Origin: Crateriforma conspicua
GTDB lineage: Bacteria > Planctomycetota > Planctomycetia > Pirellulales > Pirellulaceae
NCBI RefSeq assembly: GCF_007752935.1
Contig: NZ_CP036319.1
Span: forward strand, 6,809,155-6,873,154
Direction of reading: 5' to 3'
DNA length: 64,000 bases
Position 1 is the first letter of the stretch. Each line of letters opens with the position of its first letter. A model generated the notes under the pieces. That model saw only the letters and a program-made list of their open reading frames with translations, made no database searches and had not been told where the DNA came from. The position numbers were made by a program, and so were the translations under genes. Shown here piece after piece: positions 32,216 to 60,688 of the stretch.

Positions 32216-32761
32216 GCGGCGAAAACAAACGCTAAAGCGACTGGGAATACGTCTTTCGGCAGCCGCAAAAGGCGACGCACAAGATAGCCCAAAAGCGACG
32301 AACGAATGCGCGGCGTCCGGATCACTTTGCGAAGTCCCGCATGAACGTCAGCTAAGAATTGACTTGGAAAACTGTCGTGTTTGCAGACTGCCCGACTCGC
32401 GATTGACGGCGAACGATTGTGCTATTCCTTGGCTCGATCGTGAAGGTTTCGGCTCTTCGTCGGACCTACGATGCGCTCCCATCTCGGCGGACGCTTGTTG
32501 AAGAAATCCTCGTTGCCGGCGGGTGATTGATGGAAACACAACGCCTTGATCTGCGCCAGTCATGGCTGGTCTCGGAGCCTCGCGAACTGCGGCAAAATAG
32601 TGGTTGCGAACATTTGACACGGGGCCCGCGACCTGTTGCGTCACGCCAAATGCTCGATTGCCCGCATGTGTCGAAACGACTGGCGACAAGAATTCAAGAC
32701 CAACCGCAATTTGCAGTCCAACGGAACCGACTTGAAATCTCAGCGGTTTAGGAATCGATTG
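32216..32761. other. Divergent intergenic region, 32216-32761
   Basis: Separates the sulfatase (minus) from the GH106-like gene (plus). It contains one copy of the four-fold AraC-type promoter element at 32416-32472. Transcription from its -10 box would give a leader of about 285 bases before ATG 32762. ORFs in the leader look accidental. Confidence 0.55.
32416..32472 (+). promoter_or_regulatory. AraC-type direct-repeat promoter element (copy C)
   Basis: Half-sites ATTGTGCTATTC (32416-32427) and ATCGTGAAGGTT (32437-32448) begin 21 bp apart; -10-like TACGAT lies at 32467-32472. Half-site 2 overlaps the expected -35 position. It faces the GH106-like gene and matches the copies at 36498, 40470 and 48062. 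Confidence 0.72.
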
Positions 32762-35700
32762 ATGAACAAATCACGTTCGTTGTCCACGTTGACCAACCCT
32801 CCGGCCGTATGGCACCGATGTTGGCAAGCATTCACCAAGCATTTGGTCGGGTGCGTACTGACTACGATTCTGGTCGCCGCGATCCCGGTTTCCGCCACTG
32901 CACAACCGAAGAATTTGTCGCAAGATTTCCGTACACCGCCGTGGGAATCGCGACCACAGACATGGTTTCACTTGATTGGTGGAAACGTCGATCGACAAGC
33001 GTTGACGAAAGATCTAAACGCGGTGGCTTCGGCTGGACTCCGTGGCATCCAATTGTTTCATGGCAGAGGCAGAGCTTGGCCGGGCGTGGAGCCGCAAATT
33101 CAGACGCTCAGCCCAACATGGGATTCATTGGTGGGGCACGTTGCGGATGATTGCCAACGATTGAACTTGAAATTCACGATGCAGAATTGTCCTGGCTGGG
33201 CCATGTCCGGCGGTCCATGGATCACGCCCGATAACGCGATGCGGCATCTTGTGTTCAGCCGGGTGAATGTTTCGGGTGGAGAACGCCTGTCGTTCGATCT
33301 GGCCATTCCGCAACCCAGTAACGAAGATTGGCGTGATTACCGTGACATCGCCGTACTCGCATTTCCGACGCCCGACGGAGACGCCGATCAACCACTGATT
33401 CCATCCAAGATCACTAGCAGTTTGCCCGAGGCGGATTGGTCGAAGTTGATGCAGGGAGACGACGTCAAGATCCAAATTCCAGCGGATTCACCGGATCACT
33501 GGGTCGAGTTCAAGTTTGATCAACCGGTCACGCTACGATCGATTCAGCTGCCTCCAACGGAACACTTGATGAAACGGATGATGTTCGATCCGGATTCATC
33601 CATATCGATCTCCGCTAAACAGGACGCCGGTTGGAAACCACTGGTCACACACCAAGTACCACGAGGAAACTGGCAGGATCGCCAACCCGAGCACCACTAT
33701 GTTTTGTCTGTCCCCGATGCGAAGACCACGCGTTATCGAATGACGTTCCTTAACGGTCGACCGATGGAGATTTCGCACCTGCGTCTGTCGTCAGGGGCAC
33801 GCACCCACGATTGGCCGGCCCAAGCGGGATATGCGCTTCGCAGTCTTGAGCGAACCACACCGGCCCAACAATCCACCCAAGCATGGATCGACTTGAAAGA
33901 TGTAGTCGATGTTTCGGCGATGATGGATTCGTCTGGACAGTTGACTTGGGAACCGCCCGCCGGAGTTTGGACCATTGTTCGGTTCGGTCACGTCAATACT
34001 GGGGTAAAGAACAAGCCGGCGCCACCCGAGGCGACCGGATTCGAATGCAACAAGCTTTCGCCCAGGGGAGCCGAACAACACTTTGCCGGTTACATCGGCC
34101 GGTTATCCAGACCCGGCGGCGCGGCAGACCATGGTCGCTTGCAAGGCATGCTGATCGATAGCTGGGAGTGCTACACACAAACGTGGACGCCCGCCATGGA
34201 GGACGAGTTTCAAAAGCGTCGTGGCTATTCCCTGCGTAGCTGGCTTCCCGCCCTGGGCGGCTGGGTCGTGGAAGATCACACCACCAGCGAGAAGTTTCTT
34301 CGCGATTGGCGGGCGACCATCAGTGACCTGATTGTCGAAAACTACTACGGCCGAATGGCTGAACTGGGCAAACAACACGGCTTGGAACTTTCATTCGAAA
34401 CCGCCGTGGGTGACGTCTCGCCGGGCGACATTCTGGAGTATATCAAATCGGCCGACATTCCAATGTGCGAGGTTTGGAAGCCGAATGATCCGCACATCGG
34501 TGGATTGGAAACCAAACCGATTGCACCAACAGCATCGGCGGCGCACATCTATGGCAAACCGCGTGTCGCATGCGAAACGTTCACGTCCGCGCCGATGAAC
34601 TGGCGTGAGCACCCGTTTTCTCTTAAAAACGTCGCCGATCGAACGTTCGCGGCCGGCGTCACCCATTTGGTCTTCCATACCTACACGCATAATCCGCTCG
34701 AACGCGTGCCGGGAACATCGTTCGGCAGCACGATTGGAACGCCGTTCCTGCGTGGTCAAACCTGGTGGCCACACATGCCACTGTTCACGGATTACCTTGC
34801 TCGTTGCCAGCACATGCTGGAACAAGGCCATCCCGTTGCCGACGTGCTGTGGTACCTGGGCGATGACGTTGATCACAAACCCAGACAGGATTCGCCGTTC
34901 CCCGGCGGCTACCATTTCGACTATGTCAATCAAGACGCGTTGCTGAATCGGCTGGCAGTGGATGAAGGCGAACTGGTCATTCCCGAAGGCACGCGATGGA
35001 AGGTGCTTTGGTTGGCCCCGCAGCAGTGTCGACGTTTGACACCGCAAACACTCCAGCGAATCAAAGAACTGCTTCACGCTGGGGCAACGGTCATTGGACC
35101 GGCAGCCATCATGAATCCGTCACACAGTGGTGGCGATCAAGCGGACGGGCGGTTCCGTCGACAGGTTGGAGAGCTTTGGGGCGATGCAGATCGGCATCAA
35201 GGCGATCGCAGGATTGGCCGTGGCCGTTTGTTGTGGGGCATGCCGCTGGCACAAGCCCTCCAAAGAATCGACATACCGCCTGACGTGCACGGAACACTGT
35301 CACAGCGATGGTGTCACCGTCGCGTCGGCGATGTCGACATCTACTTTGTCATTGGAAGTCGCACACAAGCAGTCGATGCGACTCTGGAGTTTCGCGCCAA
35401 AGGCAAGCCCGAGTTTTGGAACCCGATCGATGGCCATCGCATGGCCGCCCCGATGTACCACCGGACGAAAAATGGCACCGCGATTCCGATCCGCCTGCCA
35501 GCCGCCGGTTCCACCTTTGTGGTCTTTCGTCCTAAATCATCGTCGGGCGTACCGATCCAGCGTCTTTCGCGCAATTCCGACGTCTTGCTTGACGCGACCG
35601 ACACCGCGCGCATCGACGACACACCGGGCTACCCCGCGTTTGGAATCGACCGCTATGGAATCACACAACCATGGGTTCTGCCACTGTCCCCCACGATTGA

Positions 35701-36319
35701 ATTCGATCTCACCGGCGAACATTTGATCGCCTATCAAAACGGAAAGTATCGAATCGATCGAGCCAAAGGGTCGGCGCAGACGGTGGACATCATCGATGCG
35801 AATACGATTCCTTTGGACGGCACCTGGCAACTTCAGTTTCCCAATGGATGGGACACCCCTGATCAATTGACTCTGCAAGGACCACGGCCTTGGTCCGAGT
35901 TGGACGCCCCAGCGGTTCGTCATTTCTCCGGCACCGCGACCTACAAGACGACATTCTCACTGGACGCGAAACCCGGCGATCAGCGGTTTCAGTTGGACCT
36001 AGGACGCGTCGGAAACATTGCGTCCATCGAAGTAAACGGAATCCATGCAGGCACACTTTGGTCGGCACCCTACCGACTTGATATTTCCGACCAAGTTCAG
36101 CCTGGCGAAAACACTTTATCGATCCAGGTGACTAGCACTTGGCACAATCGATTGGCATTTGATTCCGGTCAACAACCCGAGCAACGGAAGACATGGACCA
36201 TCGGCCCGCCGCCCATCGATTCGCCACTCGAATTTTCGGGTCTCAGCAACGACGTCCGATTGAACATCGGCCAGGTCGTTCGGATTACCAACGCGTCAAA
36301 GCCACCTTCACTCGATTGA
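32762..36319 (+). CDS. GH106-like alpha-L-rhamnosidase-type enzyme
   Basis: A large exported glycosidase of 1185 aa from ATG 32762; the open frame before this (from 32636) lacks leader features. The leader ends near residue 48. The N-terminal half has the blocks typical of GH106-like proteins: WFHLIGGNVDRQALTKDL, GLRGIQLFHGRG and FTMQNCPGWAMSGGPW, then a TIM barrel with DSWECYTQTW (about 463) and FHTYTHNPLERVPG. The C-terminus (about 1010-1180) is a GH2-type sugar-binding beta-sandwich (GTWQLQFP, SGTATYKTTF, LDLGRVGNIASIEVNG). GH106 enzymes release L-rhamnose from pectin and ulvan-type glycans; catalytic residues were not assigned here. The regulatory element at 32416 links it to the AraC set. 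Confidence 0.85.
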   Translation: MNKSRSLSTLTNPPAVWHRCWQAFTKHLVGCVLTTILVAAIPVSATAQPKNLSQDFRTPPWESRPQTWFHLIGGNVDRQALTKDLNAVASAGLRGIQLFHGRGRAWPGVEPQIQTLSPTWDSLVGHVADDCQRLNLKFTMQNCPGWAMSGGPWITPDNAMRHLVFSRVNVSGGERLSFDLAIPQPSNEDWRDYRDIAVLAFPTPDGDADQPLIPSKITSSLPEADWSKLMQGDDVKIQIPADSPDHWVEFKFDQPVTLRSIQLPPTEHLMKRMMFDPDSSISISAKQDAGWKPLVTHQVPRGNWQDRQPEHHYVLSVPDAKTTRYRMTFLNGRPMEISHLRLSSGARTHDWPAQAGYALRSLERTTPAQQSTQAWIDLKDVVDVSAMMDSSGQLTWEPPAGVWTIVRFGHVNTGVKNKPAPPEATGFECNKLSPRGAEQHFAGYIGRLSRPGGAADHGRLQGMLIDSWECYTQTWTPAMEDEFQKRRGYSLRSWLPALGGWVVEDHTTSEKFLRDWRATISDLIVENYYGRMAELGKQHGLELSFETAVGDVSPGDILEYIKSADIPMCEVWKPNDPHIGGLETKPIAPTASAAHIYGKPRVACETFTSAPMNWREHPFSLKNVADRTFAAGVTHLVFHTYTHNPLERVPGTSFGSTIGTPFLRGQTWWPHMPLFTDYLARCQHMLEQGHPVADVLWYLGDDVDHKPRQDSPFPGGYHFDYVNQDALLNRLAVDEGELVIPEGTRWKVLWLAPQQCRRLTPQTLQRIKELLHAGATVIGPAAIMNPSHSGGDQADGRFRRQVGELWGDADRHQGDRRIGRGRLLWGMPLAQALQRIDIPPDVHGTLSQRWCHRRVGDVDIYFVIGSRTQAVDATLEFRAKGKPEFWNPIDGHRMAAPMYHRTKNGTAIPIRLPAAGSTFVVFRPKSSSGVPIQRLSRNSDVLLDATDTARIDDTPGYPAFGIDRYGITQPWVLPLSPTIEFDLTGEHLIAYQNGKYRIDRAKGSAQTVDIIDANTIPLDGTWQLQFPNGWDTPDQLTLQGPRPWSELDAPAVRHFSGTATYKTTFSLDAKPGDQRFQLDLGRVGNIASIEVNGIHAGTLWSAPYRLDISDQVQPGENTLSIQVTSTWHNRLAFDSGQQPEQRKTWTIGPPPIDSPLEFSGLSNDVRLNIGQVVRITNASKPPSLD

Positions 36320-36644
36320 GGTTGCAGATCCCCGCCCGTCCGCACTCCGGTACTCGATCACACGCCCACCAAAAATCGCAAAGATTGGCTGGTTCAAACC
36401 CAACAGACGATGACTCTATTGCGATCGCGACGGCACCGTGACCGGGGCAAATGCAACGTGCCCCCATCGGGTATGTTAAAAGGCCGCTGTTGGAACGATC
36501 GTGCTAGTGCGAGAAACAATCGTCATGGTTTCACCGATCGAACACGCATAGACTCCCTCGCCCGCGGTACAACCGGCGGGCATCCGCTTTCGCATTTTCG
36601 CGTTCGTTTGATCACCCATTCCCCCAATGTTAGGCGAGACCCCA
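36320..36644. other. Intergenic region, 36320-36644
   Basis: Follows the GH106-like gene and precedes the aldehyde dehydrogenase. Its 3' half holds copy D of the AraC-type element (36498-36554). The remainder shows nothing recognisable. Confidence 0.5.
36498..36554 (+). promoter_or_regulatory. AraC-type direct-repeat promoter element (copy D)
   Basis: Half-sites ATCGTGCTAGTG (36498-36509) and ATCGTCATGGTT (36519-36530), 21 bp apart, with -10 box TAGACT at 36549-36554, exactly the geometry of copy A. The predicted start would be about 85 bases before ATG 36645, and the element should drive the dehydrogenase/aldolase pair. Confidence 0.75.
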
Positions 36645-38135
36645 ATGAGTGTGACGCTTCAGTTGAATCTGCTTCCCGAAGTCGAAGCATTCTTGGACCA
36701 GAGTCCGCTGGCAAGTTTTGTGGGAGGGAAAAATTTCCCCAATGCGGACGGAAATCTGGTGGCAACCATCGATCCCGGTTCGGGCCAACAGATTGCGGAG
36801 ATCCATGACCTGAGTGAAGCGGAAATTGATCGCGCCGTCGAAATCGCCGATGCAGCGTTCCCCGCGTGGGCCGCATTGCCACAACAAGAACGCAGCAGCA
36901 TTCTGTTGAAGTTGGCCGATGCGGTTGAGCAACGAAAGTCGATCATTGCCCAGATCGAATCGCTGGACGCCGGAAAGATCGAAGCTCAAGCGGCCGGCGA
37001 TGTCCAAAACTTCGTCGATACACTGCGTTACTTCGTTGAACTTTCCGGCAAAGTCGAAAAACGCACGAAGCTGGATGTCGAGGGACATGAAGCTTGGACG
37101 GTGAAGCAACCGTGGGGCGCTTGTGCGTTTATCTTCCCGTGGAACTTTCCTTTCTTGTTGATCGGCTGGGGAATTTCGCCTGCTCTTGCCGCAGGCAACA
37201 CGGTGGTCATCAAGCCGGCCGAAGACACATCGCTGTCGGCCATCTATCTGGCGCAACTGGCAAAGGAAGTCAGCGTACCCGATGGCGTGATCAATGTGGT
37301 CACCGGTCGAGGCGCAACCGCGGGTTCGGCGTTGTCCAACAACAAACAGATCAAACGAATGTCTTTCACCGGGTCACCGGAGGTCGGACGATTGGTCGGC
37401 GAAGCATGTGGACGCAATCTCGTCCCGGTTAAGCTGGAATTGGGTGGCAAAGGTGCGGCCCTGGTCTTTGACGATGTCGATGTCAAAGCCACCGCCAAGG
37501 CATTGGTGGGCGCGATCACCTTTCATACCGGGCAAGTCTGTTGTGACGCGACACGCTGGCTGGTTCATCAAGACATCTATGACGAATTTGTCGCTCATTG
37601 CCGAGACCTGATGCAGAACGTGAAGATCGGTCACCCGCTGGATCCCGAAAGCCAAATGGGACCGGTGGTCAATCCAAAGCAATGCCAGCGGGTGCTCGGT
37701 TATCAGGCCAAGGGCAAAGCCGAGGGTGCCGAATGCTTGGTGGGTGGTGGCCCGGCAAAGGTCGATGGCTATGAAGGCAACTACGTCAACCCGACGCTGC
37801 TCGCAGGATCACTGGACAACGTCGCAGCACGAGAGGAAATCTTCGGGCCGGTCGCCTATGTGACCGCGTTCGAAACCGAAGAAGACGCGATCGCAATGGC
37901 CAACGACACCGATTACGGCTTGGCCAACAGCGTATGGACCAACGACAAAGATCGTGCCGATCGTGTGGCGGAGTCCATGGTCGCCGGGAACAGCTGGATC
38001 AATGCTCACAATGTGTTTGTCCACGGCGTGCCCTATGGCGGCATCAACAAAAGCGGCATGGGCGGCGGCGTATTGTCAGTCGAAACTCTGATGGATTACT
38101 ACCGCAGCACGTCGGTGGTCCGTCCTTTGGCCTGA
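36645..38135 (+). CDS. NAD(P)-dependent aldehyde dehydrogenase
   Basis: Cytoplasmic oxidation of an aldehyde to an acid. The 496-residue protein has the ALDH superfamily landmarks: FPWNFPFLL with the active-site Asn (about 164), the [10 protein letters not shown] nucleotide loop (about 240), [10 protein letters not shown] with the general-base Glu (about 265) and [10 protein letters not shown] with the catalytic Cys (about 298). It is paired with the class II aldolase (58 bp gap) and has its own AraC-type promoter element. In rhamnose or fucose catabolism an aldolase of that class yields lactaldehyde, so lactaldehyde oxidation is a reasonable guess. An ATG at 36627 is an alternative start. 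Confidence 0.92.
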
Positions 38136-38193
38136 TCAGCCGCGTCGGACGGTTCGGTTGACCGGTGAAGTTCACAAGTGGATTGATATTGAA

Positions 38194-39486
38194 ATGACCA
38201 ACAAGCGAAACACGCTTCACCCGCGTGATGAAATCATGCGAACGATGGATCGTATTTATCGTTACCGCATGACGACCACATCAGGCGGCAATCTATCCAT
38301 CCGCGACTCCGCCGGTGACATTTGGATTTCGCCGGCCCGTGTGGACAAAGGCAACTTGAATCGCCGTGACATCGTGTGCGTTCACGCAGACGGGACCGCC
38401 GATGGCTTGCATCCACCATCCAGTGAGTTTCCCTTTCACAAAGCGATCTATGAAGCACGTCCCGACATCCGGGCGATCGTGCATGCTCATCCCGTCGCGT
38501 TGGTCGCATTCAGCATTTGTCGCCAGTCACCCGACACACGCCTGTTTCACCAAGCTCACTCGGTGTGTGGGAAAGTGGGATTTGCGCCCTATGCGTGCCC
38601 GGGAAGCGAAGCTTTGGGCGTGAGCATTGCGGACACGTTTTCCAAGGGCTGCGACAGCGTGATCCTTGAAAACCACGGTGTCGTCGTCGGCGGAAGCGAT
38701 CTTGCACGTGCGTTCGAACGATTCGAGGCGTTTGAATTCGCCGGCAAGACGCTGATTAAAGCCAACCAGCTGAGCCCCGTGCGATTCCTGGACGAGGACC
38801 AACTGAGGCAGGCGGCTGATCGCTGCGTCAATTTTGATTCTTACGATCCGGACCAGGCAACCGCTGGCGAACTGGAGCTTCGCAAGCAGCTTTGCGATTT
38901 TGTGCGTCGTGGTTGCCGCCAGCGACTGCTGATCAGTACCGAAGGCAGCTTTTCTGCGCGTGTCGACGCCGATTCTTTCCTGATCACTCCCACGCAAAAG
39001 GACCGTGAACAATTACACGCCGATGATTTGGTACTGGTTCGCGGCAACCAGCGCGAAGCCGGTAAATTAGCCAGCCGTGCCGCTCGTGCACACCAAGCGA
39101 TTTACGATAAACATCCGCACGTGCAGGCGATCGTGTTCGCCCATCCCGTGAATGCGACGGCGTTCAGCGTGACCGAAACCCCACTGGACGTTCGCACCAT
39201 TCCCGAAAGCTATGTTTTTCTGCGTGATGTGCGACGGGTACCGTACGGCGTTCAGTACCGGGACGACGGCAGTATTGCCGATTACGTGTGTCGATCCAAC
39301 CCTGCCGCGGTTTTACAGAATGACGGCGTGGTGGTAACAGGATCGACCGTGCTGGACACGTTCGACCGGTTGGAAGTTTTGGAATCCACCGCCGAAGCCG
39401 TGATCAACGCCGGTGCCATCGGAAACGTGTCGGTCATGTCCGGTGATGTGATCGACGAACTATGCACCGCGTTCAACCTGAAATGA
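38194..39486 (+). CDS. Tandem class II aldolase/adducin protein, second domain degenerate
   Basis: A 430-residue protein made of two class II aldolase (FucA/RhaD/AraD-like) domains. Domain 1 (about 10-190) keeps the active site: SSE with E78, zinc ligands H97 and H99 (HAHP) and H161 (ENHG). Domain 2 (about 228-415) has the same fold but lost them: AlaSerArg replaces Ser-Ser-Glu near 295, FAHP near 315-318 lacks the first His, and QNDG near 375-378 has Asp in place of His. Single-domain enzymes are about 215 aa. ATG 38194 is preferred over TTG 38158. Likely reactions are retro-aldol cleavage of L-rhamnulose- or L-fuculose-1-phosphate, or a 4-epimerase step; not decidable here. Confidence 0.88.
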
Positions 39487-39518
39487 ACAACCGATCAATA
39501 CAGGTCGTCCCGTGCCAA

Positions 39519-40379
39519 TCAGCGGTGGCGTTTGCGGTACTCGCGTGGTGATTCACCGTTCGCTTTGCGAAACTGGCGGCTGAAGTAGTTGCTGTCAGAA
39601 AACCCCACCTCAAATGCGATGTCCGTGATGCTGTTGTCTGTGTTCCGCAGCAACCGACTGGCTTCTTCGATCCGTAGTCCAATCAGGTAGTTGATGGGGG
39701 AGGTTCCCATCGCGGACTCAAACATTCGGATGTAGTTCGTCCGAGACATTCCAGAAATATTGACCAGCATTTCAAGTGTGATCGGATGGGCGATATGGCG
39801 TCTCATGTGCGAGATCGTTTCGCCGACGCGAATGAGTGACTTGCTGGATGGATTTCGCGTCTCGCTGTAGCAACGCGACAGAAAGGTCACCAATTCCAGC
39901 ATGGTCGCGATCGCCACGACCTCGAATCCCGGTCGCCTTGCGGCAAGTTCGCTGTCTAGCTTGTCGACCAACTGCATTGTGTCGACGATCTCCGCCGGGC
40001 TCAGCTGCAGACGACTGGTAAATTTGTGCCGGCTACGCCAAGCGGGCTCCAGCGTAAACAACGCGTGATAGCCGGAAAGCGATTGCAAATCGCCAAGCGA
40101 CAACGGCAACTCACTTGGGGTGAACAGAATGTTGATCAAACTCAATTGATCCATATTCAAATAGTCATGCGGCCGGTCGCCGCCAATGACAAACGTGTCG
40201 CCCGCTTTCAGGTCGTAGCTGTCTTCCCCCGTGATATGCACGCCTGCCCCTCCGGTGATGATCACGATTTCGGAGAACTCGTGGCAGTGCAATCCAAACG
40301 GTTCCTGAGGGTCGCGCCGCTCCACGACGATGGGAAAACCGTCGGCATGGAACCAGTCCTGCTTCTTTAGCACTTTCAT
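39519..40379 (-). CDS. AraC family transcriptional regulator (RhaS/RhaR-like)
   Basis: A 286-residue regulator from ATG 40379, with an N-terminal cupin sensor ([10 protein letters not shown] at 31-40, [14 protein letters not shown] at 61-73) and a C-terminal double helix-turn-helix (about 185-284) containing [19 protein letters not shown] and [20 protein letters not shown]. The layout matches rhamnose or arabinose activators. It is divergent from a sulfatase whose promoter carries one copy of the 21-bp-spaced direct-repeat element. Because this element occurs four times only around glycan genes in this half of the window, this protein is the natural candidate to bind it. Upstream start 40460 would add 27 residues without domain character. 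Confidence 0.92.
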
Positions 40380-40706
40380 ACGACAGCAACGCCACAACGG
40401 TGGCCATCCAGCCAGCGGATGCAGATAGAGGAATTTTGATCCGCCAGAAAACCGACCCAAGATGAAACTATTGTGCTAGTTACTGGTTCGATCGTCAAGG
40501 TTTTGGTGTCACCGGCGGCCTAGACTGCGTCTGCTGTTTGAAGGGAAAAGCGAACTGATCCGCCGACGGATCGTGACGATTCCGCTTCGAGGCGTCGCAG
40601 AGATGAATTGCAGCGTCCCAGCGGAATTGGCGACGCCGCCCACCATCGTGCTCCCGAATTTCATGCGCTCCCGCCCTTCCCTGTCGTCATCGCACGAACC
40701 TCCATC
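40380..40706. other. Divergent intergenic region, 40380-40706
   Basis: Lies between araC (minus) and the sulfatase (plus). It contains AraC-type element copy A (40470-40526), about 90 bp from the araC start, so autoregulation is possible. Nothing else recognised. Confidence 0.6.
40470..40526 (+). promoter_or_regulatory. AraC-type direct-repeat promoter element (copy A)
   Basis: Half-sites ATTGTGCTAGTT (40470-40481) and ATCGTCAAGGTT (40491-40502) start 21 bp apart; -10 box TAGACT is at 40521-40526. The expected -35 falls on half-site 2. It faces the sulfatase at 40707 and is the reference copy for the other three sites. Confidence 0.75.
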
Positions 40707-42110
40707 ATGACTAGGGTAAATCTCCCGCTGACTTTGGCTGTTCCGATGCTAGTCGCCATGGCCGCGTGGTCATCGGCGGATCAACAACAACCGGATATTG
40801 TCGTCTATCTGGCCGACGATCTATCGGCACGTGACCTTTCGCTTTACGGGGGAACGAACATTCCAACTCCCGCCATCGACGCATTGGCGGATGAGGGAAT
40901 GACGTTCGATCGCGCCTTCGTCGCCTCTCCTTCGTGTGCCCCCAGCCGAGCCGCGTTTTTGACAGGGCTGATGCCAGCACGAAACGGCGCCGAGGAAAAT
41001 CATTCCTACCCGCGAGAAGGCACACCGCGACTGCCGGCGGTTTTGAATCAAATGGGATACGAAACCGCAGCGTTCGGAAAAGTGGCTCACCTGAAAAGTG
41101 CCAAAGACTATCAGTTCCAGACATTCGATCTACGACAAGACATCCCCGACGTCCGCACTGCTGTCCAGGATTTTTTGAAGAAGCGAAACGACCCTCGACC
41201 GCTGGCGTTGTTTGTCGGCGTGTCCAATCCTCATGTTCCCTGGCCCAGTGAATCAAACGTTGATCCACAGGGAATGAACCTTCCACCGAAATTGTTGGAC
41301 ACTCCGCAAACCAGAGTACAGCGTTCTCGCTATCTACAAGAAGTCAAAGACCTGGACGCCTACCTTGGCGAACTGCGATTGCTGACACGCGAACATCTGT
41401 CGGATGATACGGTGTTTGTGTTTTCTAGTGACCATGGCGCACAGTTCCCGTTTGGCAAATGGACACTCTATGACGAGGGCACCCGCGTTCCACTGATTGT
41501 CGCTCGCCCTGGTGTGATCGAACCGGGTTCGCGTACCGACGCCATGGTCAGCTGGATCGATATCCTGCCGACGCTGATCGATGCTGCCGGTGGTAATGTC
41601 CCCGATGGACTGGACGGCCGTTCTTTCTCCGCGGTCCTGGGCGGACAACAAACCGCGCATCGCAATCGCATCTTCACGACCCACAGTGGTGACCGGTTGA
41701 TGAACGTCTATCTCAGCCGCGCCATACGCACCGACCGCTACAAGCTCATCTGGAACGTTCATCCGGAATTCGCGTTCACCACGCACATTGACCTGTTGTT
41801 GCGAGAAACGTCGGGCGATTATTTCAAACAGTGGACGGAGCTCGCGAACACGGACGCGCGTGCCGCTGACGTGGTCGCCAAACACCACGGTCGCCCTGAA
41901 TACGAACTGTACGATCTGCAGACCGATCCGCTTGAGCAAACCAACATCGCCGGGAACGAGGACGTTGCTGCAATTCAAGACCGTCTTCGAAACGAGCTGA
42001 ACTCCTGGGTCCAGTCGCAAGGCGACGAACTTACAGTGTTCCACGAACCGCTAATGCTCGACGCGCCGGAAACCTGGGAACCTCGCAAATTGCCGCGCCA
42101 AAAACGATAG
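40707..42110 (+). CDS. S1 family sulfatase (CAPSR)
   Basis: A 467-residue exported sulfatase from ATG 40707 (leader 5-24). D37-D38 in LADDLSARDLSLYGG, modified Cys C77 in CAPSR, SDHGAQFPFGKWTLYDEGTRVPL and the closing YELYDLQTDPLEQTN are diagnostic. These resemble sulfamidase-like S1 members. It is the first gene of a likely unit with the toroid-like enzyme (96 bp gap), the CRPSL sulfatase and the truncated rhamnosidase, driven by element copy A. Upstream in-frame sequence back to 40608 lacks leader character. Confidence 0.92.
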   Translation: MTRVNLPLTLAVPMLVAMAAWSSADQQQPDIVVYLADDLSARDLSLYGGTNIPTPAIDALADEGMTFDRAFVASPSCAPSRAAFLTGLMPARNGAEENHSYPREGTPRLPAVLNQMGYETAAFGKVAHLKSAKDYQFQTFDLRQDIPDVRTAVQDFLKKRNDPRPLALFVGVSNPHVPWPSESNVDPQGMNLPPKLLDTPQTRVQRSRYLQEVKDLDAYLGELRLLTREHLSDDTVFVFSSDHGAQFPFGKWTLYDEGTRVPLIVARPGVIEPGSRTDAMVSWIDILPTLIDAAGGNVPDGLDGRSFSAVLGGQQTAHRNRIFTTHSGDRLMNVYLSRAIRTDRYKLIWNVHPEFAFTTHIDLLLRETSGDYFKQWTELANTDARAADVVAKHHGRPEYELYDLQTDPLEQTNIAGNEDVAAIQDRLRNELNSWVQSQGDELTVFHEPLMLDAPETWEPRKLPRQKR

Positions 42111-42206
42111 GCGCTCGTTGTGACGGAGTTTTGAACTTCTCGACTTCGTGCCCCACCACGCCCGCGTCTCCGGTGATGGACGTGGGGTGTAAGACTAGAC
42201 GATTCC

Positions 42207-44156
42207 ATGCAACGACGTGAATTCATTACTTCCCTGACCCTCGGCGGTGCACTCGTATCGCTGGCCCCTGACCAAGTATGGGGATCCGACCAAGCGTATC
42301 GACCTGACAAGGACACACCGCAGGCCCTTTCCGAATTTGACCAACTCACCGCACAGCTATTGAAACAATGGTGTGATGGAATGCTGGCCCATCAGATCGA
42401 TGCCCCGGAAGATCCCACCCGGCATGGTGGCCTGGCGTGCCCGGCATGTCCGCGAATTCACGGTCGATGCAGCGATGCGCTGTATCCGTTTTTGCACATG
42501 GCACACACCACCGGCCAGCAGAAATACCTGGATGCTTCCATTGCCGTTTACGACTGGGCCGAGCACAACGTCAGTCGCGCCGATGGCAGTTGGACCAATG
42601 ACGTCAATCCGAAATCATGGCGTGGGACCACGATCTTTGGAGCCATCGCGTTGGCCGAAGCGTTGCACTACCACGGCGACGTGTTGGATCAATCACGACG
42701 CGACGCTTGGACGAACCGTTTGGATGAAGCGGTCGGTGGCTATCTGTGGTCTGATTTCAAGGAAATTGATTTCACCAACCTCAACTACGGCATGACTGCC
42801 GTGTACGGGTTCCATCTGTTTGGCGATCTTCTGGCGAACCCCGATTACACACGACGCAGTGAACGGTTCGCTAGCCGCGTGAAAGAGTTTTTTACCGAAC
42901 CGAACCATTTGCTTTGGGGCGAAGGCAAACCGAATGACAATCGCAGCGGTCGTGGCCTGCTGCCGGTGGACCTGGGTTACAACGTCGAAGAATCGCTCAA
43001 CGGTGTTGTCCTGTATGCCGTTGATGTGGGTGATCAGGAACTGCTCGACCTAGTGTCCAATGCGTTGGCCGGACACCTGCAATTCATGCTTCCCGATGGA
43101 GCTTGGGACAACAGTTGGGGAACGCGGTCACAGAAGTGGAGCTATTGGGGCAGCCGTACATCGGACGGATGCCAGCCGGCCTTTGCCCTGATGGCCGATC
43201 ACAACCCGGCATTCGGTACCGCAGCGATTCGCAACGCCCAGCTGATGCAGCGTTGCACGTCCAACGGCCTTCTGCACGGCGGCCCCCACTATGTTTCTCA
43301 CGGTATCAAACCATGCATGCATCACACGTTCACACACGCCAAAGTGATGGCATTGATGCAGGATCGCATGAAGTCGTTGCCGCCGGTCAATACCAACACG
43401 CCGCTGCCTCGTGAAATCGCCAGTAACGTCAAGCATGTTCCCGAACTGGATGTTTGGCTAGCGGCTAAAGGCCCTTGGCGTGCCACCGTATCGGCCTACG
43501 ATTCGATCTACAAAACTAAAAAGTCCGGTCTGCTGCAACAGCCAACCGGAGGCTCGCTGTCGGTTTTGTATCACGAGAAGGTGGGCACGTTGCTGGCGTC
43601 CAGTATGGCACGTTATGAGATGGTCGAACCGCTGAATATGCAGCCGCAACCCGGTGACGACTTTCCTCTGACCACACGAGTTGAACGTCGAATCGACGAT
43701 GATTGGTTCACCAATCTGTACGACTTGACAGCAGACGTTCGCATCTCGGAAACCGAACAGCGGTGCGTATTCGATATCGCGACCACCCTTCAGAACGAAG
43801 AACGAGACAAGCCTTCGGACGATTCCGCAGCCTTTCAATTGCGATACACCTTCGATTCCGACAAAACCACTATCTCGGTCACCCAATCCAGCGAAGCGAA
43901 GACGGAAGACGCAACACTGGTCGTGCCTCTTATCTCCCCATCCGGCGAATCAGTTCGACAGGTGTCAAATACTTGCATCGAGATCGACAAGCCACATGGA
44001 ACCGTCGTGTTGAAATCGAACGTGCCTCTGACGTTGCTCGCCGGACTCAAAAAACGAGTCTTCAACATGGTTCCCGGAATGGAATCCGCTCCCGTGGCAA
44101 TGAAACTCAGCAAAAACCCCAGCCCCATCGTGTGCGAAATTTCCGTGCGCGCATGA
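42207..44156 (+). CDS. Tat-exported alpha/alpha-toroid-like enzyme of unassigned family
   Basis: A 649-residue protein starting with a Tat-type leader (QRREFITSL then a hydrophobic stretch). Residues about 40-400 are helix-rich with repeating aromatic/His motifs (GLACPACPRIHGRCSDALYPF, DFTNLNYGMTAVYGFHLFGD, GYNVEESLNGVVLYAV, GPHYVSHGIKPCMHHTFTHAK), as in (alpha/alpha)-barrel lyases and unsaturated-glycan hydrolases. Residues about 430-649 look like a beta-sandwich. This two-part architecture is common in polysaccharide lyases (heparinase II/III- or alginate-lyase-like), but I do not recognise the family. Sandwiched between two sulfatases in the AraC-linked unit, it is a good candidate for a new glycan-cleaving enzyme. 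Confidence 0.78.
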   Translation: MQRREFITSLTLGGALVSLAPDQVWGSDQAYRPDKDTPQALSEFDQLTAQLLKQWCDGMLAHQIDAPEDPTRHGGLACPACPRIHGRCSDALYPFLHMAHTTGQQKYLDASIAVYDWAEHNVSRADGSWTNDVNPKSWRGTTIFGAIALAEALHYHGDVLDQSRRDAWTNRLDEAVGGYLWSDFKEIDFTNLNYGMTAVYGFHLFGDLLANPDYTRRSERFASRVKEFFTEPNHLLWGEGKPNDNRSGRGLLPVDLGYNVEESLNGVVLYAVDVGDQELLDLVSNALAGHLQFMLPDGAWDNSWGTRSQKWSYWGSRTSDGCQPAFALMADHNPAFGTAAIRNAQLMQRCTSNGLLHGGPHYVSHGIKPCMHHTFTHAKVMALMQDRMKSLPPVNTNTPLPREIASNVKHVPELDVWLAAKGPWRATVSAYDSIYKTKKSGLLQQPTGGSLSVLYHEKVGTLLASSMARYEMVEPLNMQPQPGDDFPLTTRVERRIDDDWFTNLYDLTADVRISETEQRCVFDIATTLQNEERDKPSDDSAAFQLRYTFDSDKTTISVTQSSEAKTEDATLVVPLISPSGESVRQVSNTCIEIDKPHGTVVLKSNVPLTLLAGLKKRVFNMVPGMESAPVAMKLSKNPSPIVCEISVRA

Positions 44157-44291
44157 ACACGACCGAAGATTCACAGCCATCACCGTCATTCCGACCGCGA
44201 AGGCCATACTCTCCCACATTCGCGTGCCTCAGCGTCCACTCGCGGATCGAAAGAATTACTCCGTCTTTACCCCATCAACCACGTCGTCGAC

Positions 44292-45629
44292 ATGATTTCG
44301 ATTGCCACCCTTTCGCGATTTTCCCCGCACGTCCTTTACAGACTCTTGCTGATCAGCTTCGGAGTTTTTCAATCGGTCGCCGCCGATCAACCAAATGTCG
44401 TTTTCATCTTGAGTGACGACCAGGCGTGGAATGATTATGGGTTCATGGGGCACGAGCACATTCAAACACCGAACTTGGATGCGTTGGCCAGGCAAGGCTT
44501 GCTATACGAACGCGGCTACGTGACCGCGCCGCTATGCCGGCCATCGCTTGCCAGTATTGTCACAAGCCGATACCCCCATCAAACCGGAATCCGCGGCAAT
44601 GATCCGGTCATGCCAGGTTCGAACAATCGCAAGAACAACCCGTCCTTGTTCGCCAAGCTTCGGCGGCGAATGACGACACCCTTGCACGAGCAACCGTCGC
44701 TGATTCGCACGTTGAATGAAAACGGTTACGCAACACTGCAAACCGGAAAGTGGTGGGAAGGCAACCCGAAAGATCATGGATTCACCCATGCAATGACGCA
44801 CGGTGACGAATCACGCGGCGGGCGTCATGGTGACAAAGGCTTGGATATCGGCCGCAAAACGATGCAGCCGATCTATGAATTTGTCGAAAACGCCGCGGAA
44901 AACGGGCAACCATTCTTTGTTTGGTATGGGGTTTTTCTGCCACACGCACCACACAACGCCCCACAGCGTTTTTTTGACAAGTACAAAGATGTCGCGCCCA
45001 ATGAACCAACGGCATGGTACTGGGCTAATGTGGACTGGTTTGATGAAACTTGCGGCGAACTGGTCAATCACTTGAAGTCTAAGGGACTCTACGAAAATAC
45101 TCTCTTTGTCTACACGTGCGACAACGGCTGGATCCCCGATCCGCAGCGACGAGACCGTTACATTCGATCAAAGCAAGAACCCGTTGAAGCGGGAATTCGC
45201 ACACCCATCTTTTTGACGCACTCGAGCACAATCGATCCGCGACGAGATTCCACAACACTGGCTAGTAACATTGATATCGCACCGACGATTCTGCGGGCCT
45301 GTGGTATCACGCCACCTGAGGAAATGGAAGGGTTGGATTTGCGTGACAGCGATGAATTGCGAAGACGCAACCGCATCTTTGTCGAAGCCTACCAGCACGA
45401 CACCGACTTGGACCACCTCGACGACATCAACCATGGTTTGAAAGCACGTGTCATCATCGAAGGCTGGAACAAGCTGATTGCATGGTCCGATCACAAGCAG
45501 CTTTTCGATCTCAAGTCTGACTCGGACGACCGAAATGATTTGTCGAACAATGATCCGCAGACGGTGGAAGAACTATCAAATGCCCTGAAGCATTGGCTGA
45601 CGAAGACCCCCATGATGAATCCCGAATGA
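44292..45629 (+). CDS. S1-type sulfatase with CRPSL core
   Basis: A 445-residue exported protein (leader 10-30). The sulfatase frame is complete: D42-D43 in LSDDQAWNDYGFMGH, GKWWEGNP, TCDNGWIP and a DLKSDSDDRNDLSN ending. The core, however, is C82-R-P-S-L86: the arginine of Cys-x-Pro-x-Arg is replaced by Leu (codon at about 44547). Cys is kept, so formylglycine formation may still happen, but the Arg normally helps both maturation and catalysis. The HLCRPSLAS-like variant may define its own subgroup. It follows the toroid-like enzyme by 135 bp. Confidence 0.9.
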   Translation: MISIATLSRFSPHVLYRLLLISFGVFQSVAADQPNVVFILSDDQAWNDYGFMGHEHIQTPNLDALARQGLLYERGYVTAPLCRPSLASIVTSRYPHQTGIRGNDPVMPGSNNRKNNPSLFAKLRRRMTTPLHEQPSLIRTLNENGYATLQTGKWWEGNPKDHGFTHAMTHGDESRGGRHGDKGLDIGRKTMQPIYEFVENAAENGQPFFVWYGVFLPHAPHNAPQRFFDKYKDVAPNEPTAWYWANVDWFDETCGELVNHLKSKGLYENTLFVYTCDNGWIPDPQRRDRYIRSKQEPVEAGIRTPIFLTHSSTIDPRRDSTTLASNIDIAPTILRACGITPPEEMEGLDLRDSDELRRRNRIFVEAYQHDTDLDHLDDINHGLKARVIIEGWNKLIAWSDHKQLFDLKSDSDDRNDLSNNDPQTVEELSNALKHWLTKTPMMNPE

Positions 45630-45708
45630 TTGCGTTCGGTTATCCGATGCCACATCCGGATCCATTTGCATAGCCACTATCTAAACAAGCACTTCGGAAT
45701 GCTTCCCC

Positions 45709-45945
45709 ATGAAATCGATCACCAAATGCGGGTACATCGTTAGCGTTGTCTTCCTGGCTCATTCATTTACCTCGATTTGGCTGACAACCTCCCGTGCCAA
45801 TGCCGCAAACCCCGATTGGCGAGCCCAGTGGATTTGGCAGGCGGAGGATGGGCCAGCGAATACTTGGGTGGCGTTTCGGAAAGAGTTTGATCTGGCGAGT
45901 GTGCCGGACGAAGCCGTCGCCAATATCTCAACCGACACCAAATAG
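45709..45945 (+). pseudogene. Truncated start of an alpha-L-rhamnosidase-like gene
   Basis: A 78-codon frame with an intact start, a Sec leader (about 8-32) and then a segment with WRAQWIWQAEDGPANTWVAF and FRKEFDLASVP, the opening of exported alpha-L-rhamnosidase proteins that are usually 700-1000 residues. It ends in a TAG at 45943-45945, just where the next beta-strand of the sugar-binding domain should begin; I see no continuation in 45946-46197 in any frame. Probably a decayed or deleted gene downstream of the CRPSL sulfatase. A genuine small secreted protein cannot be excluded. Confidence 0.68.
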
Positions 45946-46197
45946 GCATCGTGATTCAGCGTCGCGACTGTCCAAGCAACTCGCCGCAGCGGAACGAATG
46001 AAATCCAACAAAGTTCCGATGAAGAAATAGAGAGTCGCGCTGGGTGAGTCGCGTAGGAACCAAGTCAGAGACCGACACAAATGCGATTCTCGATTCGCAG
46101 GTTTTGAGAACCGCAGATTTGATGCAATCAGGTGATTGACGCTGGCAGACCGAATCGACATGGCCTCTGACCTGAAACAGGCTGTCTCTGCAGGTGG
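45946..46197. other. Non-coding remnant region, 45946-46197
   Basis: Follows the truncated rhamnosidase. It contains a spaced inverted repeat GTCAGAG / CTCTGAC (about 46064 and 46165), but no protein similarity seen. It may be what a deletion left behind. Confidence 0.35.
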
Positions 46198-47577
46198 CTA
46201 TTCAAGCTTCACGTCGATCACAGTGATATTCTTGCCTTTTTGGCCGATGATCGATGTCCAACCGTCGTGTGATGGGCGTTGGAGATCGAGTGACAACTTG
46301 CTGTTTTCGAAGGTGGATTCAAAACCAGAGGCGAGGACCTTGAATTTTGTCGGATCGGCTGGGCTGATTCGATAGAAAGTGTCATTGGATACAAGGTACA
46401 GGTTGCCATTGTAGGTCAAAAGCTTTCCAAACTGTGGCGCTTGCATTCGTGTCCAATCGCCGGTTTGGGGATCACGCTGGTAAATCGTCGGATCGCCGTT
46501 AGGGCCTCGTGCCAGAACATGAACTCGGCTTTCCTCGTCGACGACCATCGACCCGCCGTTGCGATAGCCGTGTCCAGGCGGGATCTTCATGACAGTGATG
46601 CCGGTGCTGTCGGCAGTGATGAATTCGAGACCGTGCGTTGCGACCAAACTCCCGTCGTTGTTGCGCCAATGGACCCCTCCGTCGTCACTGTAGGCGTAGC
46701 AAAGGTCATGCGAGGTGCGATGATCCGGGTTGTCTCGCCAGCACCACGTCAAGTGGCATCTACCGTGTTGGAACACAAACCCGAACGGATACGCATTCAC
46801 GGTTCCGTCACCACCAGACCAACGTTGGTCGATGAACTGACTGGACGGTTCATCACGCGGTGACCAAGATCCGCCTGAGTAATGAAACAAATGTGAGTTT
46901 GCCGCCCCGGACCCACCACCGAGGCGCAGGTACAACAGCATTGAATTGCCGTGCGAGATGAAACTCGGATAAGTCACACGCTCTAGCCTCGGAGCTGTCT
47001 GCATTTCGTTTCCCTGAGCATTATCGCCGGGGCTCTGACTATGTGCGATTCCGAGGTGATTTTGAACGTCGGCAAATAGATTCTCGTCCCAGAATACCTT
47101 CTCGGGGTATTGGGCAATCGGATCATTGCTGCGACGATAACGTAGGGTTGATAAATGATGGTCAAATGAAAGATGAATGAAACCATCGGGCGAGATGCCC
47201 ATTGCAACTTTTTCATGACCGTCTCCGAATCCGCGTGAGATCACGCCGCCCTTTCCGCGATCGCCAGTGCGGGTCCGCTGGTAATCGGATAATGACACGA
47301 CAGCCCAGGGACCATCCGGTAGCTTCCGTCTGGCTACCGAAACCTGTTTTGTGTCATCCCAGTAGGCGGCATATTGCCAACCGTTGAACGTCTGAAGTGC
47401 CCCCGGGCCGAAGTTCCATTGTGAATGCCGGTCCACTATATCGAAGGGCATGCCGTTTTCAGAAACCAACGAACGCTGGATACCGTTTGCCATCAGACCC
47501 GTTACCGCAGGAGCATCAGCGTGCAATAGGCATGATTGAAGAAGTAGTGCAATGGACGCAACGTGTCTCGCGATCAT
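46198..47577 (-). CDS. Secreted BNR_4-type beta-propeller protein
   Basis: A 459-residue exported protein (leader 1-20) of the BNR_4 propeller type. Diagnostic are GGVISRGFGDGHEKVAMGISPDGFIHLSFDHHLSTLRYRRS (about 108-150, with the FDHH pair), LLYLRLGGGSG and SDDGGVHWRNNDG. Some propeller lyases of ulvan (PL24/PL25) share this fold, using His and Tyr residues; I cannot confirm those residues here. Its location between rhamnosidase genes and sulfatases would fit an ulvan- or rhamnan-sulfate-directed lyase, but a binding role is equally possible. Confidence 0.75.
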   Translation of the reverse strand: MIARHVASIALLLQSCLLHADAPAVTGLMANGIQRSLVSENGMPFDIVDRHSQWNFGPGALQTFNGWQYAAYWDDTKQVSVARRKLPDGPWAVVSLSDYQRTRTGDRGKGGVISRGFGDGHEKVAMGISPDGFIHLSFDHHLSTLRYRRSNDPIAQYPEKVFWDENLFADVQNHLGIAHSQSPGDNAQGNEMQTAPRLERVTYPSFISHGNSMLLYLRLGGGSGAANSHLFHYSGGSWSPRDEPSSQFIDQRWSGGDGTVNAYPFGFVFQHGRCHLTWCWRDNPDHRTSHDLCYAYSDDGGVHWRNNDGSLVATHGLEFITADSTGITVMKIPPGHGYRNGGSMVVDEESRVHVLARGPNGDPTIYQRDPQTGDWTRMQAPQFGKLLTYNGNLYLVSNDTFYRISPADPTKFKVLASGFESTFENSKLSLDLQRPSHDGWTSIIGQKGKNITVIDVKLE

Positions 47578-48180
47578 CTTGTTTCCGTTCAGAGTTCCAC
47601 TGGAATATCAAACGCTCTTGCGTCGACGCCATTATCACGGATGAATCAACGGTTCTTAGTTCATTCGAGTGTCAGATGCCGAGCGTGAATTCTACACCGA
47701 TTCATCCACCACTCTGTTCGGAGACCGCGATACCTTTCGCGTCTGCGAATCCAAAGCAGTCTTGCTGCTGGGCTCGATTGAGTACCAAGACATCCTTTGC
47801 GACGAATCACCTGCGGTCGCCAACAGCACAACTTGGGACAATGCGATTTCGTCTTTGACGCGGTTTGCACCAAGCGGCTCTTGCGACAACATCGGGATAC
47901 AGAAATCAGTAGCCCCAGAGACCGGACGAACCAGTGTACCAACATCGTCCTACTTCTTTCAGTACATCAGTCGACCTTGGCTACTGAGGGACGACTCCGG
48001 TGACCTAGAAACCTTTGTACGGAAACAGCCCACACCAGAAGGCCTTCGGGCAGGCGGTACTATCGTGCTAGTTTTCGATTCGATTGTCCAGGTTTTCATC
48101 GACCCCACGGCTAAACTGAATCGTTGATCGAGAGGCGTCCAAGCCTCCAACACCAGAATGAACAAGCAGCGAACCGTGTG
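47578..48180. other. Divergent intergenic region, 47578-48180
   Basis: About 600 bp between the BNR_4 gene and the GH78-GH10 gene. ORFs in it (for example 47669-48127) lack leader or domain character and look accidental. Copy B of the AraC-type element occupies 48062-48117. No RNA gene seen. Confidence 0.5.
48062..48117 (+). promoter_or_regulatory. AraC-type direct-repeat promoter element (copy B)
   Basis: Half-sites ATCGTGCTAGTT (48062-48073) and ATTGTCCAGGTT (48083-48094) start 21 bp apart, with -10 box TAAACT at 48112-48117 (one base closer than in copies A, C and D). The predicted start is about 58 bases before ATG 48181 of the GH78-GH10 fusion. Confidence 0.72.
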
Positions 48181-59019: not shown

Positions 59020-59135
59020 GTAGCGGCGGATTCATGGCGGACGGGGCAACAAGTCACCAAGCACAAGGCTTGCCGGCTCGCCCACTGCACCAGGAATCGA
59101 CAACTCGTTTCCACACGAAACTGAAAGCTTGAAAC

Positions 59136-60572: not shown

Positions 60573-60688
60573 TTCGTAGTGGACGAGGGCACGAGTCCCG
60601 GAATCTTAGATCCTTTGCCTCGTCACAGAATCCTGACGCGTTTTACCTGACTTACCGACCTGCTGCTGCCACTGAGAATATTAGTTTG

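What the first reader, a model, noticed from the sequence alone, without database searches (positions are those of the whole stretch)
32416..48117. A four-copy direct-repeat promoter element defines a probable local AraC regulon
Seen directly: at 32416, 36498, 40470 and 48062 the consensus ATYGTGCTAGTT is followed, exactly 21 bp downstream, by ATYGTCMAGGTT-like half-sites, and then by TACGAT, TAGACT, TAGACT and TAAACT at a constant distance (start +51, +51, +51, +50). All four lie in intergenic DNA on the plus strand, 58-285 bases upstream of glycan genes (by predicted start site). A 21-bp spacing (two helical turns), with the promoter-proximal half-site on the -35 position, is the class II geometry known for AraC. 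The only AraC protein in the window is encoded next to copy A. Inference: it activates the GH106-like, dehydrogenase/aldolase, sulfatase/toroid and GH78-GH10 units together.
Basis: partly seen in the sequence, partly recalled or inferred. Interest (0 to 1): 0.88.

Follow-up and report, generated by a model that had tools for sequence, protein, structure and literature searches.

The report
Planctomycete L-rhamnose regulon with tandem operator
Four matching DNA switches in this bacterium's sugar-degradation island appear to belong to a small genome-wide set that lets a sensor protein turn on both the breakdown of rhamnose-containing polymers and the use of the freed sugar L-rhamnose; the arrangement is a new member of a known kind, recognisable in relatives from two phyla.

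Summary
The four tandem elements are real, intergenic and very specific: a pattern search of the 7.18-Mb genome finds six copies, and the reversed pattern none. The other two precede the genome's two L-rhamnose isomerase genes (rhaA), at 97 kb and 1.89 Mb.

The window's AraC protein is RhaS/RhaR-like. In 11 of the 13 family genomes outside the genus with a site of up to 2 mismatches, the element lies between the divergent regulator and rhaA. Such sites occur in 15 of 20 family genomes with the regulator and 0 of 129 without. None of 27 genomes with rhaA but no regulator has a site, even at 3 mismatches. A related 21-bp tandem extends into Verrucomicrobiota.

So this is an L-rhamnose regulon, most likely activated class-II style, joining rhamnosidases and sulfatases to rhamnose catabolism. 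A 71% identical paralogue may share control. Direct 21-bp repeats are already described for other AraC-type rhamnose regulators (PMC3870299). Binding, effector and activation are untested.

The parts
32409..32449 (+). Operator A (41-bp tandem element), upstream of the GH106 gene
   Evidence: 49.9 bits; 2 mismatches to the pattern; conserved in the genus mate
32467..32472 (+). -10-like hexamer TACGAT at +51
32762..36319 (+). GH106 alpha-L-rhamnosidase (start codon uncertain)
   Evidence: Pfam PF17132, 613 bits; alternative starts
36491..36531 (+). Operator B, upstream of the ALDH-aldolase unit
   Evidence: 0 mismatches; 53.8 bits
36549..36554 (+). -10-like hexamer TAGACT at +51
36645..38135 (+). 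Aldehyde dehydrogenase (likely lactaldehyde dehydrogenase)
   Evidence: PF00171; none of the 25 NCBIfam models shown is above its cut-off; substrate inferred from context
38158..39486 (+). Class II aldolase with two Aldolase_II stretches (likely rhamnulose-1-phosphate aldolase)
   Evidence: PF00596, two stretches; substrate inferred
39519..40379 (-). AraC-family regulator (RhaS/RhaR-like), proposed regulator of the regulon
   Evidence: HTH_18, HTH_AraC, AraC_binding; best NCBIfam RhaS 142 bits, below the 288 cut-off; N-terminal domain of its family profile matches RhaR 5u93, E 2e-21
40463..40503 (+). Operator C, in the divergent AraC/sulfatase promoter
   Evidence: 0 mismatches; 59.4 bits
40521..40526 (+). 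-10-like hexamer TAGACT at +51
40707..42110 (+). Sulfatase, first gene of the C unit
   Evidence: PF00884
42207..44156 (+). 649-aa protein without a known family, in the C unit
   Evidence: no Pfam match to E 10, none in NCBIfam at 0.001, none in PDB sequences to E 1
44292..45629 (+). Sulfatase, in the C unit (same transcript inferred)
   Evidence: PF00884
48055..48095 (+). Operator D, upstream of GH78-GH10
   Evidence: 0 mismatches; 50.6 bits
48112..48117 (+). -10-like hexamer TAAACT at +50
48181..52956 (+). GH78 alpha-L-rhamnosidase fused to a GH10 domain
   Evidence: PF17389, PF08531, PF00331
53011..54480 (+). Sulfatase following GH78-GH10 (same transcript possible)
   Evidence: PF00884

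Best explanation
The four elements are operators of an L-rhamnose regulon. A dimer of the window's RhaS/RhaR-like AraC protein, probably with L-rhamnose bound in its cupin domain, binds two direct half-sites 21 bp apart (TGGCACKATYGTGCTAGT and GGCACGATYGTCAAGGTTT). The promoter-proximal half-site lies over the -35 region of promoters that have a TANNNT -10 about 17 bp further on and no recognisable -35, so it activates them class-II style. Targets in this genome are GH106, GH78-GH10, a sulfatase unit and an aldehyde dehydrogenase/aldolase unit in the window, plus the rhaA-permease-GH78-GH78 group at 97 kb and, with a weaker copy, rhaA2 next to a paralogous regulator at 1.89 Mb. Shown: the elements, their specificity, conservation, promoter geometry, gene context and co-occurrence with the regulator. 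Inferred: binding, L-rhamnose as effector, activation, operon extents, and the substrate (a sulfated rhamnose-rich polymer).
For: Six copies in the genome, reversed control 0; the two outside the window precede rhaA genes. All five strong copies recur in the genus mate and the element is under constraint. In 149 family genomes, sites with up to 2 mismatches occur in 15 of 20 with the regulator and 0 of 129 without (Fisher 1e-16). Among 47 rhaA-bearing genomes, sites with up to 3 mismatches occur in 18 of 20 with the regulator and 0 of 27 without (Fisher 4e-11); the genomes are related, so the p-values overstate. First sense gene after the 34 retained sites: rhaA 17, GH78/GH106 7, sulfatase 4, ALDH or class II aldolase 4, other 2. 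TANNNT at +50..52 in 34 of 34. The window regulator nests with 100/100 support in a 10-row clade; the 8 members outside the genus are rhaA-adjacent. The N-terminal part of the family profile matches RhaR 5u93, E 2e-21. In 53 of 62 GTDB loci the tandem beats all 100 shuffles, 51 at 21-bp spacing and 2 at 20.
Against: No binding or expression data. The regulator is far below the RhaS equivalog cut-off (142 against 288), and the E. coli rha region has no match to the matrix (best -15.6). Five of 20 regulator-bearing genomes (G081, G114, G128, G129, G137) lack a site at 2 or fewer mismatches; near their rhaA/regulator genes I saw only weaker, altered or indel-bearing copies (-10.5 to 29.3 bits), and G081's 3-mismatch pattern hit is probably chance. 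The more distant homologues in G086 and the second one in G141 have no scoring site beside them, and in G111 the rhaA site is on another contig than the regulator. One site precedes malate:quinone oxidoreductase (L069) and one has no clear sense gene within 1 kb (L084). The rhaB-like kinase and the microcompartment genes have no site in the stretches scanned. Nine of 62 GTDB loci do not beat shuffles, and four of the 62 (L113-L116) are records whose sites helped train the matrix.
Confidence: 0.87

Rival explanations
1. The sites are bound mainly, or jointly, by the paralogous AraC protein at C1:1888469-1889314, so that two rhamnose regulators share one operator set.
For: 71% identity; second recognition helix [10 protein letters not shown] the same in both; its own divergent rhaA2 promoter carries a copy of the element.
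Against: Genomes in which one search found only a window-type regulator still have 0-mismatch sites: G110 before rhaA and before ALDH, G147 before rhaA. The copy at rhaA2 is the weakest of the six (AAGGCAA end, TANNNT at +52). The first recognition helix differs (SRTNYIRMF against SRRSFIRTF).
Confidence: 0.3
2. The regulator represses as well, holding promoters off by a different contact without the sugar (AraC-like dual control), so that the tandem element is only the induced-state site.
For: Direct tandem sites with 21-bp spacing resemble AraC I1-I2 (recalled); the divergent location between regulator and rhaA would allow autoregulation.
Against: The matrix finds only the four elements in the window, one per promoter; single half-sites at a distance were not scanned for.
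Confidence: 0.15
3. Another transcription factor binds the element and the AraC gene is only a neighbour.
For: No binding data; the full unit contains a GGCAC-N4-GTGC-like dyad that a dimeric factor could use.
Against: The site tracks the AraC gene and not rhaA, lies beside it in relatives from two phyla, and has the direct-repeat 21-bp periodicity reported for AraC-type rhamnose regulators (PMC3870299, passages).
Confidence: 0.04
4. The copies are a dispersed repeat or a chance similarity without regulatory role.
For: Four copies lie within 16 kb.
Against: Placement before genes, fixed -10, constraint against flanks, rhaA copies elsewhere and cross-phylum conservation.
Confidence: 0.01

Closest known systems
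AraC-type RhaR L-rhamnose regulators of Bacteroides, Bacillales and Enterococcus (Rodionova et al. 2013, PMC3870299; 12 of 21 passages seen)
   Different: Different lineage: the words planctomycet and Rhodopirellula do not occur in that paper's main text. I did not compare operator letters or test orthology. The gene set here includes sulfatases and two rhamnosidase families.
E. coli RhaS and RhaR
   Same: Domain architecture; similarity to the RhaR N-terminal structure and along the whole length to RhaS, 142 bits; divergent regulator/catabolic gene layout. In the E. coli rhaB upstream region the distance AAGG-20 bp-TAGACT, counted by eye, equals that in copy C.
   Different: The introduction of PMC3870299 describes the E. 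coli operators as inverted repeats, although its discussion calls the AraC-group motifs tandem; no matrix match in the E. coli rha region; score below the RhaS equivalog cut-off.
AraC araI1-I2 at the araBAD promoter (recalled)
   Same: Two direct half-sites 21 bp apart, the proximal one at the -35 region.
   Different: Different operator sequence and gene set (recalled, not compared here).

Membership tests
AraC/XylS family of transcription factors | C-terminal double helix-turn-helix domain | tested here: met
   HTH_18 86.3 bits and HTH_AraC 71 bits, both above cut-off
AraC/XylS family of transcription factors | N-terminal cupin-type ligand domain (common in sugar-responsive members) | tested here: met
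   AraC_binding 43.8 bits and Cupin_2 31.7 bits, above cut-off
RhaS/RhaR (enterobacterial) | Orthology by curated equivalog score | tested here: not met
   RhaS 142.3 against cut-off 288; the three RhaR models also below theirs
RhaS/RhaR (enterobacterial) | Inverted-repeat operator | tested here: not met
   Two units in direct orientation, 21 bp apart, in the 34 sites. The E. coli operators are called inverted in the introduction of PMC3870299, while its discussion calls AraC-group motifs tandem, so the criterion itself is not firm
AraC-type L-rhamnose regulators (functional group) | Control of rhaA and other L-rhamnose genes through a shared motif | tested here: met
   Motif before rhaA in 17 of 34 sites and before both rhaA genes of this genome; control itself is inferred
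AraC-type L-rhamnose regulators (functional group) | Direct-repeat motif with 21-bp periodicity | tested here: met
   (51 of 53 significant loci at 21)
AraC-type L-rhamnose regulators (functional group) | L-rhamnose-dependent induction | not testable with these tools
   Needs binding and expression assays
Class II activated promoter | Activator site over the -35 region with a correctly spaced -10 | tested here: met
   TANNNT at +50..52 in 34 of 34; the 17-bp-spaced -35 position falls in the conserved AGGTTT end of unit 2
Class II activated promoter | Activation of transcription from that start | not testable with these tools
   No transcription data available

The most novel reading that the evidence does not exclude
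A single rhamnose regulator-operator pair has been kept, with its 21-bp tandem geometry, across Planctomycetota and Verrucomicrobiota. In this genus its gene was moved from beside rhaA into a sulfated-rhamnan-type degradation island while the operators stayed with the dispersed targets, so that polymer attack, a previously unclassified NCS1-like L-rhamnose permease and catabolism form one regulon under one sugar signal.
Probability: 0.65. Interest if true: 0.62.

Novelty: new member of a known kind. Interest (0 to 1): 0.5.

Why it matters
Planctomycetes carry many sulfatases and glycosidases whose control and substrates are mostly unknown. A specific, searchable operator gives a way to assign dispersed sulfatases, rhamnosidases and unclassified proteins to one substrate (L-rhamnose polymers) by sequence alone. 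It also predicts a permease and offers a candidate rhamnose-inducible promoter to test in the phylum.

Tried and rejected
Chance or dispersed-repeat origin: rejected. E. coli-type RhaS operator: no matrix match in the E. coli rha region. Motif tied to rhaA rather than to the regulator: rejected, 0 of 27 rhaA-positive, regulator-negative genomes have a site; 'regulator-negative' means no match at E 1e-20. Inclusion of the rhamnulokinase-like gene and the microcompartment genes in the regulon: no site in the 3-4 kb stretches L182-L184, L186 and L188 nor in the whole-genome pattern search. Of 37 family sites, five were left out of the 34-site set: four weak 3-mismatch hits (L015, L016, L018, L036), which score -14.6 to 8.8 bits and have no TANNNT, and one not fetched (G105 contig 660, same letters as the G013 site). 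Two 4-mismatch sites (L065, L094) were added. In some searches five of 67 loci (L167-L171: partial, or other AraC proteins) were left out. The tree used 44 chosen rows: 23 from the family genomes and 21 of the 67 loci. In one search the rhaA2 pair (0 of 41 in the element, 197 of 404 in the flanks) was printed but kept out of the totals. The 649-aa protein was not modelled: its homologues came from the genome search, which the structure tool does not list as a source, and a single-sequence model would be poor. Literature: six searches, of which I saw the top 20, 20, 15, 15, 12 and 10 of 68, 127, 66, 50, 190 and 19 papers as listings; none of those titles or abstract openings is about a planctomycete or verrucomicrobial rhamnose regulon. 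Outline and abstract of PMC12858550 were seen (it uses the E. coli promoter), passages of PMC3870299 and PMC8857213. The library holds open-licence papers only, and the Erbilgin 2014 paper on the planctomycete microcompartment is not held.
Full report
CHECK OF THE OBSERVATION. The four copies were read at 32416, 36498, 40470 and 48062. The second half-sites are exactly 21 bp on and the -10-like hexamers at +51, +51, +51 and +50, as described. All lie between supported genes: sulfatase 30794-32215 and GH106; GH106 and aldehyde dehydrogenase; AraC gene and sulfatase; BNR_4 gene and GH78-GH10. The AraC gene is beside the third copy, 90 bp from it, not the first. A matrix of the element separates the four copies (49.9-59.4 bits) from everything else in the window (best -8.6).

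GENOME-WIDE SPECIFICITY. A pattern with up to 3 mismatches finds 5 places in the 7.18-Mb genome. A slightly looser core finds 6, and the reversed pattern none. Besides the four, one copy ends 78 bp before a 428-aa gene at about 97 kb that is L-rhamnose isomerase (PF06134 654 bits; NCBIfam rhaA above cut-off), followed by a membrane protein and two GH78 rhamnosidases. The sixth lies at C1:1889473, between a second AraC gene (71% identical) and a second rhaA, followed by two sulfatases. The genome holds 16 HTH_18 (AraC-type) matches, one of them in the window.

ANATOMY. The 5' part is degenerate in the window copies, which is probably why it was missed. TANNNT at +50..+52, never part of a search, is present in 34 of 34 and 0 of 4 set-aside weak hits, against 1.2% for random window positions and 1.6% for the intergenic stretches. 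The -35 position falls on the conserved AGGTTT, which is not a -35 consensus. This is the expected layout of a class II activator site.

CONSERVATION. The genus mate G001, the only other genus genome held, has all five strong copies. Their 41-bp elements differ at 6 of 205 positions, the high-information positions at 1 of 130, the flanks at 280 of 1879. In 149 family genomes 20 have the regulator and 20 a site with up to 3 mismatches, 18 of them the same genomes; one of those 18 (G081) rests on a probably chance hit. At up to 2 mismatches sites occur in 15 of 20 regulator-bearing genomes and 0 of 129 others (Fisher 1e-16). The pattern read backwards gave 5 hits in the 149 genomes, against 37 forward. 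To separate the regulator from its presumed target, rhaA was sought: 47 of 149 genomes have it, including all 20 with the regulator; the 27 with rhaA but no regulator have no site (Fisher 4e-11). These genomes are related, so the p-values overstate.

GENE CONTEXT. By my reading, the first sense gene after the 34 sites is rhaA in 17, GH78 or GH106 in 7, sulfatase in 4, aldehyde dehydrogenase or class II aldolase in 4, malate:quinone oxidoreductase in 1 (L069), and unclear in 1 (L084, DUF1559 then GH78, more than 1 kb away). In 11 of the 13 genomes outside the genus with a site of up to 2 mismatches, a site lies between the divergent regulator and rhaA; the exceptions are G111 (regulator beside an aldolase) and G086 (distant regulator elsewhere). 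In the window genus the regulator sits in a sulfatase/rhamnosidase island instead. The tree puts it inside a fully supported 10-row clade whose 8 members outside the genus are rhaA-adjacent, so the regulator was most likely moved while the operators stayed with their genes.

DEEPER CONSERVATION. One GTDB scan gave 67 loci, by their titles Planctomycetota and Verrucomicrobiota apart from a few untitled or unrelated. In 62 of them (five partial or unrelated left out) rhaA is within the fetched flank in 54. The best tandem of half-units upstream of the regulator, with spacings 15 to 30 allowed, exceeds 100 of 100 shuffles in 53 of 62, at spacing 21 in 51 and 20 in 2. Many verrucomicrobial sites read like TGGCGGGATCGTGCT...TTGGCCAAACAGTGGAGGTTTTT: the same frame with changed letters. 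This is weaker than the family result, because the matrix was tuned to planctomycete sites, four of which (L113-L116) are among the 62.

THE REGULATOR. Domains are AraC_binding/cupin plus HTH_18. The best curated match is RhaS at 142 bits, below the cut-off of 288, so it is not filed as an RhaS orthologue. The profile of 15 relatives matches the N-terminal structure of RhaR first (5u93, E 2e-21; source organism recalled as E. coli). The second recognition helix shows at most single changes among those 15 and is identical in the paralogue.

MECHANISM AND LIMITS. The most likely mechanism is L-rhamnose-dependent class II activation by a dimer on the tandem. Steps shown: operator, promoter geometry, regulator identity by family, targets, co-occurrence. 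Steps inferred: binding, effector, sign of regulation, polymer. The paralogue may share the sites (rival 1). The rhamnulokinase-like gene (below its equivalog cut-off) and the microcompartment shell genes, expected for planctomycete rhamnose use from PMC8857213 (passages), show no site, so the regulon does not cover the whole pathway.

COMPARISON. Rodionova et al. 2013 (PMC3870299, passages seen) already describe AraC-type rhamnose regulators in Bacillales, Bacteroides and Enterococcus with direct repeats of 21-bp periodicity, and RhaS control of rhamnogalacturonide genes in Erwinia. The present system appears to work the same way in a lineage that paper's main text does not mention. It is a new member of a known kind, with sulfatases and rhamnosidases among its targets. 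Six literature searches, seen as truncated listings, showed no planctomycete or verrucomicrobial rhamnose regulon.

A SIDE PREDICTION. The 474-aa protein that follows rhaA in many of these loci has no Pfam match to E 10, no NCBIfam match and no PDB sequence match. A model of a homologue (L105, mean pLDDT 82.1) matches CodB best (E 2.3e-10, TM 0.69 by query and 0.81 by target), then Mhp1 and other LeuT-fold transporters. It is the natural candidate for the L-rhamnose permease; transport is untested.

Noticed in passing
L008:7430-8854 (-), own genome about 94.4-95.9 kb: 474-aa membrane protein after rhaA, no Pfam, NCBIfam or PDB sequence match; the model of a homologue has an NCS1/LeuT-type fold (CodB, Mhp1). 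Candidate L-rhamnose permease of an undescribed family.
   Followed up: partly
window 42207-44156 (+): 649-aa protein with no Pfam, NCBIfam or PDB sequence match, in the sulfatase unit of the regulon; found in 9 of 149 family genomes (own included), 8 of which carry the regulator. Possible new rhamnan-active enzyme.
   Followed up: partly
L065:8458-15038 (own genome C1:1888457-1895037): Second regulator, second rhaA and two sulfatases with a weaker copy of the element: a duplicated rhamnose locus.
   Followed up: partly
A natural spacing variant.
   Followed up: partly
L069:9216 (-): A 0-mismatch site is followed, about 360 bp on, by a malate:quinone oxidoreductase gene, an unexpected possible regulon member.
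   Followed up: no
window 57853-62433 (+): Sugar-acid dehydratase (enolase family), aldehyde dehydrogenase and KDG-type kinase genes, an Entner-Doudoroff-like route, without the element; perhaps for another sugar of the same polymer.
   Followed up: no
window 40463-40526 and L098: In the E. coli rhaB upstream region the distance AAGG-20 bp-TAGACT equals that of copy C although the rest of the operator differs (counted by eye); may be coincidence or a shared constraint.
   Followed up: no
operators of relatives, e.g. L066:9472, L113: The full unit contains a GGCAC-N4-GTGC-like dyad in addition to the 21-bp direct repeat; it is degenerate in the window copies.
   Followed up: no
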